The translations under genes were made by a program, and so were the position numbers. From the IMG/VR virus record IMGVR_UViG_3300013372_001588, positions 1-34,218 of that record: 34,218 bases of DNA; one strand, given 5' to 3'. Within the stretch, counting starts at the first letter, position 1; each line of letters starts with the position of its first letter. Origin of the DNA: a virus. This document shows positions 21,711-32,157 of the stretch, one piece after another. The notes below the pieces were generated by a model. That model worked only from the letters and a program-made list of their open reading frames with translations, did no database searches and was not told where the DNA came from.

Positions 21711-21868
21711 TTAGCCCTTGCCCACGTTGCAATGCAGTCGGCCAGATACCGCGCTGTGTCAGCCAACCTCACCACCGCCTCGACGTCAGGCGTTGCAAAG
21801 GCAAGCTCGCGTTGCAATTCCTTGCAAACTTGCTTGAGAACAACAAGATCGAGTGCGGGGTTATCCAT
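21707..21868 (-). CDS. Small hypothetical protein upstream of large terminase (53 aa)
   Basis: A 53-codon frame starts MDNPALDLVVLKQVCKELQR and reads as an all-helical, mildly charged protein. It has a strong ribosome site (AAAGGAGAG) before the ATG at 21868. The ATG overlaps the end of the long frame 21861-23090 by eight bases, and its TGA overlaps the terL GTG (GTGA). This tight spacing on both sides supports a real gene. No family is recognised; a helper in packaging or modification is possible. Confidence 0.6.
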   Translation of the reverse strand: MDNPALDLVVLKQVCKELQRELAFATPDVEAVVRLADTARYLADCIATWARAK

Positions 21869-23090
21869 CAAACTCTCCTTTCAAAATTTCCCATGCTGTT
21901 GCTGCCACGATTGGAACTTGTCCATTTCCAATGGCTTTAAGTCTGTCCACTCTGGCGCTTATCCCCATCGCAACGCGGCTGATCGCTTGCCGTGTTCCCT
22001 GCTGCAAATCGAACTCCCGCATAGCACCGACCGCCGAGCCCGCTTCGGCTGGAACAGTGTCCCGCAGATCGAGCACGGCACCATCGCCAGCTGCTTGTGC
22101 TCGGCGTGGTGGCATGGCAAACAAAGCACCTCCACATTCTCCGGTGCGTTGTTCATCGGGTTGCGATCCTTGTGGTGGCGCTCCAGCTTCTCGGTTGAAC
22201 CACATTTCACGCACGAATGAGCCTCGATCATGCGTTGTGCTTGCCGCCTGCCAGTATTGAAATTCGCGCTCATTCAATGCCTCCAGTGAAGTCCAGCCTG
22301 TTGGCCAGTTCATCAGCCACTCGACCCACGTCGGGTTCAACGCGCCACTGTTCGCGTCCACGACCATAGAAAGCATCAACTGCTTTCCGATGGCCTTCCG
22401 GCGCTGGACTGAAGGCAGCGACAGATTGCCGCGATCCCTGTTGTCGTTGGCGGACGGGGTCGGGAATCTCGTGTAAATGGCGGTGTGCGGACCCTCGATG
22501 CCTTTCAGTGCTCGATCCATCTCCGCCGGGGATGCCGTCGCATGCTTTGCGTTCTGCGCTGTTGGCGTGGGCCACAATCCACAGCCGGTCCCGCTGATGC
22601 GGCGCGCCGACATCGGCAGCGCCCAGCACAGTCCATCGCGCGTCATACCCAAGCGCGGCCAGGTCACCGAGGACTCGTCCGAGTCCGCGAGTAACGAGAG
22701 CTGGGCTGTTTTCCACGAATGCGTGGCGGGGTCGAACTTCGCCAATGATGCGAGCGAACTCGGACCAGAGGCCGGAGCGTTCTCCGTCGATGCCTGCGCC
22801 CTTGCCGGCGACGCTGATGTCCTGGCAGGGAAACCCGCCAGAAACCACGTCAACACGTCCGCGCCACGGTCGTCCGTCAAAGGTGCGAACGTCATCCCAA
22901 ATCGGGAAAGGCGGGAGAAGGCCGTCATTTTGTCGGGCGGCAAGTACGCAAGCTGGGTATGGCTCCCATTCAACTGCACAGACTGTTCGCCATCCGAGCA
23001 GGTGCCCGCCAAGGATTCCTCCTCCTGCTCCGGCAAAGAGCGCAAGTTCTCGTAATCCTGCATCAGTGCGTTGCTGATTAGCCATGTCAT
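21861..23090 (-). CDS. Long overlapping frame: methyltransferase TRD / C-terminal-like protein (409 aa)
   Basis: This frame encodes 409 residues from the ATG at 23090, which overlaps the HTH stop (ATGA). It contains AFSRLSRFGMTFAPLTDDRG (about 57-76), LWPTPTAQNAKH (about 172), LNPTWVEWLMNWPTGW (about 251-266) and, at the end, VDRLKAIGNGQVPIVAATAW, which resembles motif X of cytosine-C5 methyltransferases. I recognise these motifs from phage proteins that look like target-recognition and C-terminal parts of methyltransferases. The frame completely contains the frames at 22270-23085 and 21959-22273 on the same strand, so nearly all its bases are read twice. It may supply motif X in trans or be a fusion relic. 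Confidence 0.6.
   Translation of the reverse strand: MTWLISNALMQDYENLRSLPEQEEESLAGTCSDGEQSVQLNGSHTQLAYLPPDKMTAFSRLSRFGMTFAPLTDDRGADVLTWFLAGFPARTSASPARAQASTENAPASGPSSLASLAKFDPATHSWKTAQLSLLADSDESSVTWPRLGMTRDGLCWALPMSARRISGTGCGLWPTPTAQNAKHATASPAEMDRALKGIEGPHTAIYTRFPTPSANDNRDRGNLSLPSVQRRKAIGKQLMLSMVVDANSGALNPTWVEWLMNWPTGWTSLEALNEREFQYWQAASTTHDRGSFVREMWFNREAGAPPQGSQPDEQRTGECGGALFAMPPRRAQAAGDGAVLDLRDTVPAEAGSAVGAMREFDLQQGTRQAISRVAMGISARVDRLKAIGNGQVPIVAATAWEILKGEFDG
21959..22273 (-). CDS. HNH endonuclease nested in the methyltransferase locus (104 aa)
   Basis: The 104-residue protein has an HNH core: CVKCG (21-25), LERHHKDRNP with His33-His34, NNAPENVEVLCLPCHH (41-56) with Asn45 and a CxxC pair, then a second Cys pair set (CSIC at 67-70, CGSSIC at 85-90). 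The family includes small homing endonucleases that lie in or next to conserved phage genes. The ATG at 22273 overlaps the TGA of the methyltransferase frame in ATGA. The whole gene lies inside the long frame 21861-23090 in a different phase. Cleavage site and activity are unknown. Confidence 0.78.
   Translation of the reverse strand: MSANFNTGRRQAQRMIEAHSCVKCGSTEKLERHHKDRNPMNNAPENVEVLCLPCHHAEHKQLAMVPCSICGTLFQPKRARRSVLCGSSICSREHGKRSAALRWG
22270..23085 (-). CDS. DNA cytosine-C5 methyltransferase, motifs I-VIII
   Basis: The 271-residue frame carries FAGAGGG (17-23, motif I), GGFPCQDIS with the catalytic Cys87 (83-91, motif IV), ENSPAL (125-130, motif VI) and QRDRLWIVAH (164-173, motif VIII). 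Homologues normally continue into a C-terminal part like ANRVDRLKAIGNG. Here the frame reaches GRVADELANRLDF and then stops at 22270, so motif X is absent. The start at 23085 is one base after the HTH stop; an in-frame ATG at 23187 would enter the HTH gene. The product would protect phage DNA from restriction if it is active, alone or with the overlapping long frame. Confidence 0.82.
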   Translation of the reverse strand: MANQQRTDAGLRELALFAGAGGGILGGHLLGWRTVCAVEWEPYPACVLAARQNDGLLPPFPIWDDVRTFDGRPWRGRVDVVSGGFPCQDISVAGKGAGIDGERSGLWSEFARIIGEVRPRHAFVENSPALVTRGLGRVLGDLAALGYDARWTVLGAADVGAPHQRDRLWIVAHANSAERKACDGIPGGDGSSTERHRGSAHRHLHEIPDPVRQRQQGSRQSVAAFSPAPEGHRKAVDAFYGRGREQWRVEPDVGRVADELANRLDFTGGIE

Positions 23091-23269
23091 CGTTTCGTTT
23101 TGATGCAAAACAGTTCAAACAACGCGGGGCACATCTTGCGCTCGCCCCGCTCCCATTGAAACCAGTTGCGCTGCGTGCGATACACAAGCGCCGCCGCTTT
23201 TGCTGCGGTGAGACCCGCGTTTGAGCGAGCCTCGCGCACTTGTTGTGGGGTTGGGTTTGCTGGTTTCAT
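23087..23269 (-). CDS. HTH DNA-binding protein, XRE/Cro-like (60 aa)
   Basis: The 60-residue protein contains a helix-turn-helix pattern: QQVREARSNAGLTAAKAAAL, then VYRTQRNWFQWERGERKM and a final helix FELFCIKT. This order (AGLT-x-x-x-A-A-A-L, then QRNWFQWERGER) is that of small Cro/XRE regulators placed ahead of phage methyltransferase genes. It sits downstream of a minus-strand terminator hairpin and directly upstream of the methyltransferase starts, so it could set expression of that locus. No repressor-type C-terminal domain is present. Confidence 0.72.
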   Translation of the reverse strand: MKPANPTPQQVREARSNAGLTAAKAAALVYRTQRNWFQWERGERKMCPALFELFCIKTKR

Positions 23270-23740: not shown

Positions 23741-24175
23741 TCAATCCTTTTTGCTTTGCGCAGATTGATCCACAATAACGCGCTCAATTTTTTTGATTTC
23801 AATCGGCGCGCCATCTGCGCCCGTGTGCTCATGCTTCTGCGTTTCGGCCCACCGCATCTGCGTCTTTGACCACCAAATCATCGCCGCCGTGTCACCGCCC
23901 ATTGCCTTTTGAAACAAGGTCTTTCCAATCTGCCCGTTCGCCTTGCCTTTGCCCGTGACCAACTCAGCGCCAAAATGAGCGCGAAGCGTGTCGACGTGGA
24001 TGCCATCGCGCACCAAGACTGCAATCTGCTCAATAGGCAGGCCGTAGCCGGACAACGCCTCGACCTGTTTGCGCTCGGCATCGGTGGGTTCAAAGGCTGG
24101 TCTGCCTGCACCTTCTCTAGCACCGCCATTGATTTTTGTCTTTTTTAGTACCGATTTTTCAGTTTTTGTTTCCAT
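23741..24175 (-). CDS. Terminase small subunit
   Basis: The 144-residue protein has the opening GGAREGAGRPAFEPTDAERK, a helix-turn-helix-like middle (QVEALSGYGLPIEQIAVLVR, DGIHVDTLRAHF) and LFQKAMGGDTAAMIWWSKTQ, the usual pattern of small terminases of this class, which recognise the packaging site and recruit the large subunit. GGAGG lies just before the ATG at 24175. The start overlaps the Mom gene by 17 bases. The large terminase lies about 2 kb further on, separated by the methyltransferase locus, unlike P22 where the genes are adjacent. Confidence 0.8.
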   Translation of the reverse strand: METKTEKSVLKKTKINGGAREGAGRPAFEPTDAERKQVEALSGYGLPIEQIAVLVRDGIHVDTLRAHFGAELVTGKGKANGQIGKTLFQKAMGGDTAAMIWWSKTQMRWAETQKHEHTGADGAPIEIKKIERVIVDQSAQSKKD

Positions 24176-24899
24176 TTGTAACCTCCGCGAAAGGTTGTCC
24201 AGTTTCTGCGTGTATTGGAGCGGGTGGGTCGGTGTCGCGCCGCCGCTGTTCTGGCTGGTCGCCAGTCATCGCCTGCTTCACCCGCTTAGGATATGGTTTT
24301 GCAAGTGGTTGAATCTTAGCACTCATGTCTTTGTCAAGTGGCATCAGGTATTTGTGCTTGCCCTTAGATCTGAATTCTTTTGCATTTGGGTCAAGGCATC
24401 TGTGAACTTCTGCAATGCTTTGTTTTACGCCAAGGCTGTCAATTGATTTTCTGTGTGTTTTCTTGCCATTGATGATAAATGCACTGACTGAATCTTTGCC
24501 AAACAAGCCTTCATAAATCCAATTAGTTGCCTGATAAATGCCACCATGATGGTTTGAATCAAGATCGGCATAAGACACGACAAGACGAATCCCTGGGTTG
24601 GACTTCTTCAAGAACTTAATGGCCCACATTATGATCTTACTGACTGGCGTGTCATGCTTTGTCAAAGCCACACGAACAAGCTCAACACATTCATCTTGGC
24701 TTAATCTATAAGGACTGCCAAGGTTGGTGTTTGCTCCACGGCCAAAGATTACGACCCCAATGAATTTGCCATTTTCCCAAGCCCCGACTTTGACCAATTT
24801 GCCAACAGGCAAACTTTTGCTGTAATGCCAATTCAAACAAGCATACTTATCAGCCTCATGGCTTGCCCAGTCGATCTTTAGCTCAGGCTTGTCTTGCAT
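24159..24899 (-). CDS. mom: Mom-like adenine modification protein
   Basis: The 246-residue protein carries the Mom pattern: LNWHYSKSLPVGKLVKVG (about 22-39), GKFIGVVIFGRGANTNLG, VELVRVALTKH, then VVSYADLDSNHHGGIYQATN and WIYEGLFG, followed by KYLMPLDKDM and AKPYPKR. Phage Mu Mom is a GNAT-like enzyme that converts adenine to N6-(methylcarbamoyl)adenine and blocks many restriction enzymes. Compared with Mu, the C-terminal 45 residues here are a polar extension. I start at 24899, inside the ParB gene end (17-base overlap), with AAAAGAG upstream. No clear Com homologue is adjacent; several small zinc proteins upstream are candidates. Confidence 0.85.
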   Translation of the reverse strand: MQDKPELKIDWASHEADKYACLNWHYSKSLPVGKLVKVGAWENGKFIGVVIFGRGANTNLGSPYRLSQDECVELVRVALTKHDTPVSKIIMWAIKFLKKSNPGIRLVVSYADLDSNHHGGIYQATNWIYEGLFGKDSVSAFIINGKKTHRKSIDSLGVKQSIAEVHRCLDPNAKEFRSKGKHKYLMPLDKDMSAKIQPLAKPYPKRVKQAMTGDQPEQRRRDTDPPAPIHAETGQPFAEVTNGNKN

Positions 24900-25401
24900 C
24901 AAACTCTTTTCCGCAGTGTGGGCAGGCAATCCATTTTGGGTCTAGTTCATCCAGCTTGCCTTGGTCTTCCTCAGTGCCTGGTTCAAAGTCTGGTGTCTGC
25001 AATGACTGGATTTCTTCAGCCTTGAAGCCAACTAGATCAAGGTCAAACCCCAGATCGCCAATCTCGCCCAGCTCAAGCGCCAGCATCTCATTATCCCAAC
25101 CTGCATTCATAGCCAGCTTGTTGTCAGCCAGCACATACGCCCGCTTTTGCGCGTCCGTCCAGCCTTCTGCAACGATCACCGGCACCTCTTCCATGCCAAG
25201 CTTACGGGCTGCCATAATGCGCCCATGACCTGCAATGATCTGCCCGGTGTCATCCACTAACACAGGCGTTGTCCAGCCCCATTCTTTGATGCTGGCCGCG
25301 ATCTGCGCTACTTGCTCATCACTGTGCGTGCGCGAGTTTTTCGCATACGGAATCAGCTTATCGATTTTCCACTTCTCAATTTTGTCGGCAGGATTCGACA
25401 T
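24883..25401 (-). CDS. ParB-like nuclease-domain protein with C-terminal zinc knuckle
   Basis: The 172-residue protein has the ParB/sulfiredoxin-fold core: KIDKLIPYAKNSRTH, QIAASIKEWGWTTPVLVD, then GQIIAGHGRIMAARKLGM with the GHGR motif (58-61) and EVPVIVAEG. It ends with ACPHCGKEF (159-167), a CxxC pair. Phage proteins of this type often lie beside DNA modification or terminase genes. Here it overlaps mom by 17 bases, and its start overlaps the preceding TGA (TGATG). It may help recruit Mom to DNA, act as a nuclease, or sense phage DNA. The function is inferred from the neighbourhood only. Confidence 0.78.
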   Translation of the reverse strand: MSNPADKIEKWKIDKLIPYAKNSRTHSDEQVAQIAASIKEWGWTTPVLVDDTGQIIAGHGRIMAARKLGMEEVPVIVAEGWTDAQKRAYVLADNKLAMNAGWDNEMLALELGEIGDLGFDLDLVGFKAEEIQSLQTPDFEPGTEEDQGKLDELDPKWIACPHCGKEFDARQA

Positions 25402-25529
25402 CAAAACCCCCTGGGCTTTGGATAGCACACCACCACGCCTCGACTATCCACCTTGCACTGATAATCACCTGCAAACGCCTGAACTTCATTTGCAACAAAA
25501 AAACAAACTATTGCTAAAATTGTTTTCAT
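25401..25529 (-). CDS. Small putative exported peptide (42 aa)
   Basis: A 42-codon frame begins MKTILAIVCFFVANEVQAFA, a convincing Sec signal peptide (basic start, hydrophobic core, AFA|G or AQA-like cleavage zone near residue 20). It then encodes a 22-residue mature part with two Cys (CKVDSRGVVVCYPKPRGF). GAAGGTG lies before the ATG at 25529. The TGA overlaps the ParB start as TGATG, so it is in the operon. Exported phage peptides can act in lysis or superinfection exclusion, but I recognise no family. The signal peptide is a visual call. Confidence 0.55.
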   Translation of the reverse strand: MKTILAIVCFFVANEVQAFAGDYQCKVDSRGVVVCYPKPRGF

Positions 25530-30176: not shown

Positions 30177-31118
30177 ATGAAAAAACTCATAAAAATCACC
30201 AGCCGGTTGCAATGGTTGGCCGAGCGCGCAAAAGACATAACTTCAACGGAAGTGTCCGCTCTTTTCGGACTGTCGCCTTACATGACAGAGTTTGAGCTTT
30301 ACCACCAAAAGCGCGACAAGGTAATCGTCACGCTGGAAGAAAACGAACGTCTGAAGTGGGGCCAGCGGCTGGAATCAGCAATCGCTCACGGTGCAGCCGA
30401 GGACATGGGCTGGAAGATTGCAAAGATGGATGTTTATATTCGCGATCAAGAGGCACGTATGGGATCAAGCTTTGACTTTGAGATCCTAAGCTCAAGCGAC
30501 GGCCCCGGCATCTTGGAAGTTAAAAACGTCGATCGCTTGGCATACCGCCAAAACTGGCTGGATGATGGTCAGGGAAACATCGAAGCCCCGGAGCACATTG
30601 AGCTGCAATGCCAGCATCAAATGGCCGTGACAGGTCGCTCTTGGTGCGCTCTCGTTGCCCTGGTCGGTGGAAACGAGCAAAAGATAGTCCTGCGGAATCG
30701 GGACGATGCAATCGGTGCGAAGTTGCGAGATAAGGTTATCGCGTTTTGGGAACGCGTGCAAACTGGGCGGGCACCAGCGCCTGATTACGACAGGGATGCC
30801 GAGTACATCATCAAACGCAGCTGGGCAAATGACGGCGAAGAAATGCAGGCCGATAAAGAGCTTGGTGAGTTGATCCGGTTGTATCAATTTGCTGCGCGTG
30901 AGTTCTCAGACCTTGAAAAGATCAAGGATAGGCGCAAGGCAGAAATCATTGATCGAATCGGCACCGCAAGCCGGGTTTTTACCGAATTCGGCACATTGGC
31001 ATGCGGGCAAGTGCAGGATGCACCCGCGGTCGTTATCACGCCCGAAATGGTAGGGCAATCAATCGGCGGCCGAAAAGGTTATCGGTCGTTTCGTTTCAAC
31101 AGCAAGAAAGGTCAGTAA
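30177..31118 (+). CDS. YqaJ-type recombination exonuclease
   Basis: The 313-residue protein matches the YqaJ viral recombinase family: ITSTEVSALFGLSPY (21-35), ERLKWGQRLESAIA (57-70) with Glu66, then GSSFDFEI (97-103) with Asp100, GILEVKNV with Glu114 and Lys116 and HIELQCQHQMAVTG (140-153). These positions correspond to the D...E-x-K core of lambda-exonuclease-like enzymes, which degrade one strand of double-stranded DNA. It is encoded two genes before RecT, its functional partner. The ribosome site is weak (A-rich). The C-terminal 60 residues are more variable. Confidence 0.85.
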   Translation: MKKLIKITSRLQWLAERAKDITSTEVSALFGLSPYMTEFELYHQKRDKVIVTLEENERLKWGQRLESAIAHGAAEDMGWKIAKMDVYIRDQEARMGSSFDFEILSSSDGPGILEVKNVDRLAYRQNWLDDGQGNIEAPEHIELQCQHQMAVTGRSWCALVALVGGNEQKIVLRNRDDAIGAKLRDKVIAFWERVQTGRAPAPDYDRDAEYIIKRSWANDGEEMQADKELGELIRLYQFAAREFSDLEKIKDRRKAEIIDRIGTASRVFTEFGTLACGQVQDAPAVVITPEMVGQSIGGRKGYRSFRFNSKKGQ

Positions 31119-31120
31119 TC

Positions 31121-31342
31121 ATGGAAATCAAGATTCAGAAAAACGTGCCGATTCCCGGCAAGGCAAAGAAAACAAGCAAATATCCGTTCGAGAAAATGGC
31201 TGTTGGCGATTCGTTTTCCGTACCCGTAAAACCGGCAGGTCTTTACGTAGCAGCCCGCAAGTGGGCAAAGGATAACAACGGGGATGCCCGCTTTGTAGTG
31301 CGCGCCGACGGCGAAGGATCACGCTGCTGGAGGGCAAAATAA
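31121..31342 (+). CDS. Small protein between exonuclease and RecT (73 aa)
   Basis: The 73-residue protein begins MEIKIQKNVPIPGKAKKTSK and has YPFEKMAVGDSFSVPVKPAG, then AARKWAKDNNGDARFVVRAD and an end RCWRAK. This pattern recurs in small phage proteins beside recombination genes. The charge and size suggest an accessory DNA-binding or protein-contact role. The ATG is two bases after the exonuclease stop. The stop overlaps the RecT ATG (TAATG), so the three genes are coupled. Confidence 0.65.
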   Translation: MEIKIQKNVPIPGKAKKTSKYPFEKMAVGDSFSVPVKPAGLYVAARKWAKDNNGDARFVVRADGEGSRCWRAK

Positions 31343-32157
31343 TGTCAAACGAAATCACGGCAATTGACAGCATGCGGAACACGCTCAAGGCAATGACTGT
31401 TGAATTTCAGGCCGCGTTGCCTCCGCAAATCCCGGTGGAAAAGTTTATCCGCACCACGATGACGGCAATTCAGATGCAGCCAGGGCTACTGAATGCCGAC
31501 AAACGAAGCCTGCTGGCCAGCACCATGAAGGCGGCCCAGGACGGTTTGCTGTGTGACGGGCGCGAGGCTGCCCTGGTTGTGTATCGCACCAAGGAAGGCC
31601 CCAAGGTTCAGTACATGCCGATGGTCGGCGGCATTCTCAAGAAGATCCGCAACTCGGGCGAGCTTGCCAGCATCGGGGCGCATGTAGTGTATGAGCGCGA
31701 TCAGTTCGAGTATCAGCTGGGCGATGATGAACAAATCGCGCACAAGCCGTTTCTTGGCGCAGACCGCGGCCAGCCAATCGCTGCTTACGCAATCGCCAAA
31801 ACTAAGGATGGCGCAATTTACCGCGAAGTAATGAGCGTGGCAGACGTTGAAAAGGTGCGCGCCGCCAGCAAAGCCCGCGACGCCGGCCCGTGGGTTGATT
31901 GGTGGGATGAAATGGCCCGCAAAACCGTTATCCGCCGCCTGGCAAAGCGCCTGCCATCAAGTGCCGATCTTGATCAGGTGCTCGACCATGACAACGAAAG
32001 CTTTGTGCAAGTTGAGCGCCGCGAGCCGGTCAATGTGACTCCCGCGCCTGAGCAACAGCAAGCGCCGCTGTCCAGGCTTAAGGCCTCGATGAACGAGCCT
32101 GAAGCGCCGGTGGTTGATATTTCCGAAGCGGTTGAGGTGCCCAATGATTCTCACTAG
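31342..32157 (+). CDS. recT: RecT-family single-strand annealing protein
   Basis: The 271-residue protein has the RecT pattern: FIRTTMTAIQMQPGLLNADK, then SLLASTMKAAQDGLLCDGRE, AALVVYRTKEGPKVQYMPMV, GGILKKIRNSGELASIGAHV, and WWDEMARKTVIRRLAKRLPS. RecT proteins pair single strands produced by their partner exonuclease, here encoded upstream. The last 60 residues are a polar, variable tail. The start overlaps the previous stop (TAATG). Together with SSB and RusA this makes a complete phage recombination set. Confidence 0.93.
   Translation: MSNEITAIDSMRNTLKAMTVEFQAALPPQIPVEKFIRTTMTAIQMQPGLLNADKRSLLASTMKAAQDGLLCDGREAALVVYRTKEGPKVQYMPMVGGILKKIRNSGELASIGAHVVYERDQFEYQLGDDEQIAHKPFLGADRGQPIAAYAIAKTKDGAIYREVMSVADVEKVRAASKARDAGPWVDWWDEMARKTVIRRLAKRLPSSADLDQVLDHDNESFVQVERREPVNVTPAPEQQQAPLSRLKASMNEPEAPVVDISEAVEVPNDSH

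What the first reader, a model, noticed from the sequence alone, without database searches (positions are those of the whole stretch)
23741..25529. Exported peptide - ParB - Mom - small terminase cluster
Four genes overlap or abut: a signal-peptide micro-protein, a ParB-like protein with a zinc knuckle, a Mom-type adenine modifier and the small terminase. The mom start lies inside parB and the terS start lies inside mom. Mom is best known from phage Mu, where translation depends on Com. Here, in a P22-like phage, coupling to parB could replace Com control, and DNA modification might be coordinated with packaging.
Basis: partly seen in the sequence, partly recalled or inferred. Interest (0 to 1): 0.62.

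Follow-up and report, generated by a model that had tools for sequence, protein, structure and literature searches.

The report
ParB-partnered Mom DNA-modification cassette beside terminase
This virus of bacteria carries a swappable gene cassette, in which a ParB-like protein is followed by an enzyme (here a relative of phage Mu's Mom) predicted to disguise the virus's DNA from bacterial defences, and near-twin viruses carry a completely different DNA-modifying enzyme in exactly the same slot.

Summary
On the minus strand a 42-aa signal-peptide-like protein, a ParB-domain protein, a Mom homologue and the small terminase overlap by 1, 17 and 17 nt. Mom is secure: Pfam Mom 4.8e-42, and its predicted fold matches the Mu Mom crystal structure 8bv8 (Z 17.5). 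ParB-Mom is a deep unit: 121 of 121 ParB-Mom loci examined have a ParB ending in a CPxC zinc knuckle, also in Enterococcus, Arthrobacter, Microbacterium and Salinibacter phages. TerS follows in 110 of 119 testable loci, but not in most of those distant phages. The micro-protein is not part of the conserved unit. The slot between ParB and terS is a swap site. Two contigs 95% identical to the window over 2.6 kb carry an N6/N4 methyltransferase fused to the same ParB in place of Mom. Others carry a C5-cytosine methyltransferase; more distant ParB relatives sit beside a TET-associated glycosyltransferase or an ABC-GNAT protein. The ParB tail travels with the enzyme: knuckle with Mom and C5, none when fused, other tails for other enzymes. 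Best reading: ParB is a chassis that recruits exchangeable anti-restriction enzymes. Com is absent, but coupling is generic; coordination with packaging is unsupported.

The parts
25401..25529 (-). 42-aa protein with Sec-type signal peptide (MKTILAIVCFFVANEVQA), two Cys in the mature part; not part of the conserved module
   Evidence: identical protein only in near-twin L105; one look-alike in L025
24883..25401 (-). parB: 172-aa ParB/sulfiredoxin-fold protein without HTH or C-terminal dimerisation domain
24913..24924 (-). CPHC zinc knuckle (C160, C163) in the ParB tail; present in 121/121 ParBs paired with Mom and 7/7 paired with a C5 methyltransferase, absent in 25/25 methyltransferase fusions
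24904..24912 (-). Shine-Dalgarno-like GGAAAAGAG for mom, encoded by knuckle codons G-K-E
   Evidence: sequence; junctions
24159..24899 (-). mom: 246-aa Mom-family acyltransferase
24162..24275 (-). Mom C-terminal tail (residues 209-246), predicted disordered; the last 17 residues match the tail of ParB-methyltransferase fusions
24217..25034 (-). segment exchanged between the window and near-twins L105/L106 (Mom with knuckle tail versus N6/N4 methyltransferase)
24177..24217 (-). shared 3' joint including the terS ribosome-binding site GGAGG (24182-24186), 97.6% identical to L106
23741..24175 (-). terS, small terminase subunit (144 aa)

Best explanation
This is an exchangeable phage DNA-modification cassette built on a ParB-domain partner. 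Mom is the enzyme: by homology it transfers an acyl-derived group to adenine N6 of phage DNA before packaging, so that virion DNA resists host restriction. The ParB-domain protein is not a plasmid partition protein; it is a small DNA/NTP-binding partner that most likely helps load or target the enzyme on phage DNA. Its tail, with a CPxC knuckle, is specific to the kind of enzyme and is swapped with it, so it probably docks the enzyme or dimerises. Mom is made by translational coupling from parB, with its start and Shine-Dalgarno sequence inside parB. terS is next door because the slot lies at the head of the packaging operon. Shown here: homologies, overlaps, purifying selection, cassette exchange, and the tail-enzyme correlation. 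Inferred: modification activity, the chemistry, recruitment by ParB, coupling of translation.
For: Mom family and fold. ParB fold and invariant P-motif arginine R61. ParB-Mom pairing across hosts. Exchange: contig L105 is 95.5% identical to the window over 2567 nt up to parB codon 122, then carries an N6/N4 methyltransferase instead of Mom, then resumes 42 nt before terS; L106 shows the same. Both states have independent contigs (L002 for Mom, 99.9% identical). The named phage record MW202867 has the same ParB (75%), TerS (78%), TerL (83%) and portal (74%) with a fused methyltransferase. C5 methyltransferase in the slot. Glycosyltransferase and ABC-GNAT beside ParB. The ParB-domain tree needs at least 12 changes of enzyme type, and the window's nearest ParB is a methyltransferase fusion. 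Tail against enzyme type.
Against: No activity, modified base or ParB-Mom contact was shown. Moms of Mu, Salmonella VSiP, Corynebacterium, Geobacillus and Acinetobacter JeffCo phages have no annotated ParB next door, so Mom can work without it. The ParB knuckle has only two cysteines. ParB could instead be a nuclease or regulator that shares the operon. The surveys are seeded from the window's own proteins and their relatives, so the percentages are not population frequencies.
Confidence: 0.7

Rival explanations
1. The ParB knuckle is a Com analogue: the zinc tail of ParB binds the mom mRNA and switches on mom translation, replacing Com.
For: Com is a zinc-finger translational activator of mom (PMC6483171) and in Mu the com and mom frames overlap. 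The ParB CPxC codons lie just before the mom start, and Com itself is absent.
Against: Com has a four-Cys finger, this tail has two. The same knuckle precedes a C5 methyltransferase. The mom start has a plausible SD, and its predicted structure is not unusual in the window (z 0.47), although the Mu control was not significant either.
Confidence: 0.1
2. The order is only packaging-operon synteny: ParB and the enzyme are independent genes co-inherited because they sit at a recombination-prone place upstream of terS, with no functional link.
For: The slot is clearly recombination-prone; MTase variation in packaging modules of near-identical phages is published (PMC7468147).
Against: ParB-Mom pairing persists in Enterococcus, Paenibacillus, Arthrobacter and Microbacterium loci away from terS. 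ParB is covalently fused to the enzyme in the methyltransferase form, and ParB tails track enzyme type 121/121, 7/7, 0/25, 0/57 and 0/4.
Confidence: 0.15
3. ParB is a nuclease arm and Mom the protecting arm of a miniature restriction-modification pair aimed at host or rival DNA.
For: A ParB-methylase of Bacillus cereus (Bce_0392) is reported to nick DNA non-specifically (cited in PMC5512222), and Mom in jumbo phages is fused to endonucleases (PMC7824862).
Against: This ParB has only the ParB/Srx fold, whose better-supported property is NTP binding (PMC12704722); no nuclease activity or motif was tested here.
Confidence: 0.1

Closest known systems
Phage Mu com-mom operon (Mom, PDB 8bv8)
   Same: Homologous GNAT-fold enzyme, 20-24% identical; conserved HYS, ExxR, S(F/Y)AD and GxxYxAxN motifs; translation start inside the upstream gene, which encodes a cysteine-knuckle protein
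   Different: No Com; the partner is a ParB-domain protein; packaging locus rather than the end of the genome; no ParB beside mom in Mu
Phage ParB-methyltransferase fusions (PF02195 + PF01555; surveyed in PMC12704722)
   Same: Same ParB domain (about 90% identical in near-twins), same place before terS, same 3' joint
   Different: Enzyme is Mom, on its own frame and translationally overlapped; ParB tail carries a CPxC knuckle instead of the fused enzyme
CmoX carboxymethylcytosine systems with neighbouring ParBc proteins (PMC12783734)
   Same: ParB-domain gene close to a DNA-modifying enzyme whose role with it is unknown
   Different: Different enzyme chemistry (C5 of cytosine with carboxy-SAM)
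Cryoconite Mu-like phage with MTase or 'acetyltransferase' in the packaging module (PMC7468147)
   Same: Near-identical phages differing by modification genes near ParB and terminase
   Different: The acetyltransferase was not identified as Mom there, and no ParB link or tail swap was described in the sections read

Membership tests
Mom (Mu Mom family, PF25680) | Match above the curated family cut-off | tested here: met
   144 bits against a cut-off of 27.1
Mom (Mu Mom family, PF25680) | Fold of Mu Mom (GNAT) | tested here: met
   8bv8 Z 17.5 over 187 residues; next GNAT 11.5
Mom (Mu Mom family, PF25680) | Serine whose mutation inactivates Mu Mom (S124) | tested here: inconclusive
   MAFFT puts invariant S87 opposite S124; HMMER places the gap differently
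Mom (Mu Mom family, PF25680) | Modifies adenine N6 in phage DNA | not testable with these tools
   needs virion DNA
Mu-type com-mom operon | Com zinc-ribbon activator (PF10122) | tested here: not met
   no match in the 34-kb record at E 10; Mu control found; the record may be incomplete
Canonical ParB partition protein (TIGR00180) | Score over cut-off; HTH and C-terminal dimerisation domains | tested here: not met
   39.1 bits against 58.45, only the N-terminal domain aligned; the 172-aa protein ends in linker and knuckle
ParB-CTPase/sulfiredoxin fold protein | Fold and P-motif arginine | tested here: met
   7bnr Z 12.6, sulfiredoxin Z 12.4; GHGR with R61 invariant in 17 sequences
ParB-CTPase/sulfiredoxin fold protein | Binds CTP, ATP or GTP | not testable with these tools
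   biochemistry needed
Small terminase | Match to TerS family, in packaging operon | tested here: met
   phrog_309 6e-13; followed by TerL and portal after an inserted methyltransferase block

The most novel reading that the evidence does not exclude
Phages use one ParB-fold NTP switch as a chassis for plug-in DNA-modification enzymes: an enzyme-specific ParB tail docks Mom, a C5 methyltransferase, a glycosyltransferase or an ABC-GNAT enzyme, or is replaced by direct fusion, and tail plus enzyme are exchanged as one piece between otherwise near-identical phages.
Probability: 0.4. Interest if true: 0.75.

Novelty: new variant of a known kind. Interest (0 to 1): 0.52.

Why it matters
ParB-domain proteins beside phage modification enzymes are common and unexplained; a 2025 paper states that their function in this context is unknown (PMC12783734). 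The near-isogenic pair found here (same ParB, same terminase, Mom versus methyltransferase) and the strict link between ParB tail and enzyme give a direct handle on that question, and identify a Mom subfamily that appears to work without Com.

Tried and rejected
The micro-protein as part of the module: rejected, not conserved. Com elsewhere in the record: none. RNA inhibition structure at the mom start: z 0.47 in the window, -2.1 only in the Yersinia-type L051, Mu control not significant, so inconclusive. ParB in distant Mom phages: not annotated next to Mom in VSiP, Geobacillus PK3.6, Corynebacterium Stickynote or JeffCo. Packaging coordination: no test available beyond gene order. Iyer et al. 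2009 and 2013, which may already mention ParB near modification genes, are not held, so priority could not be checked. No paper in the searched library was found to describe a ParB-Mom pair.

Full report
OBSERVATION. The peptide stop and parB start share one base (TGATG at 25403-25399). The mom ATG (24899) lies 17 nt inside parB and the terS ATG (24175) lies 17 nt inside mom. Both downstream starts have good Shine-Dalgarno sequences inside the upstream frame: GGAAAAGAG at 24912-24904 and GGAGG at 24186-24182. Family assignments are secure. mom and parB are under purifying selection: dN/dS 0.10-0.19 and 0.07-0.13 in the pairs that were not saturated.

THE ENZYME. The AlphaFold2 model of Mom (mean pLDDT 77.5; residues 209-246 disordered) matches the crystal structure of Mu Mom, 8bv8, first in Foldseek (E 1.4e-10) and in the second alignment (Z 17.5, 187 residues, against 11.5 for the next GNAT). 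A profile of 21 relatives finds 8bv8 as its only PDB match (5.5e-14). Alignment with Mu Mom and other distant Moms leaves E73, L74, R76, S109, A111, D112, G119, Y122, A124, N126, H149 and Y184 invariant. S87, invariant in the 21-sequence set, aligns with the catalytic-mutant serine S124 of Mu in one alignment, but gap placement is ambiguous. Chemistry by homology: acyl-type modification of adenine N6 (PMC7824862; PDB calls the Mu protein methylcarbamoylase).

THE PARTNER. ParB is a 172-aa protein with a ParB-CTPase/sulfiredoxin fold (7bnr Z 12.6, sulfiredoxin 12.4) and the invariant P-motif GHGR. It falls below the cut-off for partition ParB (39 of 58 bits) and has no room for the HTH and C-terminal dimer domains. 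Its tail is a conserved linker ending in CPxCGxxF. The tail has two cysteines only, so a full zinc site would need a dimer or a partner.

CONSERVATION. Eighty IMG/VR relatives of Mom were fetched. parB is directly upstream on the same strand in 79; the remaining one, L007, starts inside mom. Over all loci classed as ParB-Mom (Mom-seeded and ParB-seeded), the CPxC tail is present in 121 of 121, including phiEf11, Arthrobacter Shade, Salinibacter B2_17 and Microbacterium Appa, and terS follows in 110 of 119 testable. A small extra frame separates parB and mom in some (L027, L039, L054, Shade). In Microbacterium, Arthrobacter and Paenibacillus loci no terS is adjacent. The more distant Moms of Mu, VSiP, Geobacillus, Corynebacterium and Acinetobacter phages have no annotated ParB. 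In the Mom tree the ParB-linked Moms group together, with moderate support (90/90). So the ParB partnership marks one Mom subfamily, and the terS neighbourhood marks only part of that subfamily. Genome hits for this type are in Yersinia, Paenibacillus and a Methyloprofundus MAG; the window's own host is unknown.

THE SLOT IS EXCHANGEABLE. The closest ParB domain in the survey belongs to a ParB-methyltransferase fusion. Contig L105 is 95.5% identical to the window over 2567 nt, through the micro-protein and parB to codon 122. There homology ends; L105 continues as an N6/N4 methyltransferase fused to ParB (PF01555 2e-36), and homology resumes at window 24217, 42 nt before the terS ATG (82%; in L106 97.6% over the joint and 89% in terS). 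L105 and L106 are separate contigs with the same structure, and the window's own state is confirmed by L002 (99.9% over 2264 nt), so assembly error is unlikely. The named phage record MW202867 shows the same: ParB 75%, TerS 78%, TerL 83% and portal 74% identical, but a fused methyltransferase; 17 residues at the end of Mom match the end of that fusion, 13 of 17. A third group (L113, L116, L118, L119, L130, L149, L153; terS seen in six) has a C5-cytosine methyltransferase (PF00145 4e-49) between the same ParB and TerS, with its start inside the ParB tail. More distant ParB relatives precede a TET-associated glycosyltransferase (PF20691 8e-35; E. coli phage 611R4 and prophages, followed by terS) or an ABC ATPase-GNAT protein. 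The ParB-domain tree needs at least 12 changes between enzyme types; starred branches alone force at least five changes of the Mom label. Few columns were available, so many forks are unresolved.

THE TAIL GOES WITH THE ENZYME. CPxC tails: Mom 121/121, C5 7/7, fused methyltransferase 0/25, glycosyltransferase 0/57, ABC-GNAT 0/4. Many of these are near-copies (86, 6, 24, 43 and 3 distinct ParBs), but the contrast recurs between sister sequences: window against L105, L005 against L148, L028 against L145, L118 against L139. The left exchange boundary falls between the ParB fold and this tail, so tail and enzyme move as one piece.

MECHANISM. Best supported: a modification cassette whose enzyme is Mom and whose ParB partner loads or targets it on phage DNA. 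The fusion state is the classic argument that two proteins work together. Translational coupling would keep the two in proportion. Modification itself, recruitment and docking are inference. The three rivals (Com analogue, mere synteny, miniature restriction pair) are listed with their tests.

KNOWN AND NEW. Known: ParB-MTase fusions in phages and NTP binding by the fold (PMC12704722); ParBc genes near CmoX, function unknown (PMC12783734); MTase variation and one 'acetyltransferase' in the packaging module of a Mu-like phage whose map shows ParB and terminase (PMC7468147); Com control of Mu mom (PMC6483171). Not found in the searched library: the ParB-Mom pair as a unit, the knuckle-enzyme correlation, and the near-isogenic Mom-for-methyltransferase exchange. 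Papers by Iyer and colleagues could not be read.

Noticed in passing
window 21861-23187 (-): Between terS and terL an inserted block holds an HTH protein and a C5 methyltransferase. Two overlapping frames both match PHROG methyltransferase families over the same ~580 bp (phrog_363 6e-66 and phrog_1008 3e-29); either an overprinted gene pair or a frameshifted methyltransferase.
   Followed up: partly
L234 4522-5427, L235 4519-5649, L236 4519-5649: ABC ATPase-GNAT protein directly after a ParB, overlapping its end; PMC7824862 says such GNAT-ABC proteins were predicted to modify DNA bases.
   Followed up: partly
L027, L029, L039, L041, L054, L078; L084 4486-4710: A short extra frame (roughly 60-75 codons) lies between parB and mom in some relatives, overlapping or abutting parB; no family was assigned and no Com-like cysteine pairs were seen.
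   Followed up: no
window 24175-24300 and L069 1260-1420: The last ~70 nt before the mom 3' end are nearly identical between Moms only 60% identical elsewhere, as if this stretch serves as a recombination joint.
   Followed up: no
L113, L118, L130, L308: The C5 methyltransferases in the slot carry SPPC at the catalytic loop, the motif PMC12783734 uses for CmoX carboxymethyltransferases; they might be CmoX-like.
   Followed up: no
L216-L225, L231: In several Escherichia-type prophages the ParB frame is truncated or runs into unrelated genes such as tail-fibre sequence, suggesting that parB is a recombination breakpoint.
   Followed up: no
window 30177-32157 (+): YqaJ/RecE-like exonuclease and RecT annealing protein, a recombination pair that could drive such cassette exchange.
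   Followed up: no
window 25401-25529 and L025: Exported-looking micro-proteins with a signal peptide, two Cys and a C-terminal GF just before parB in two phages.
   Followed up: partly
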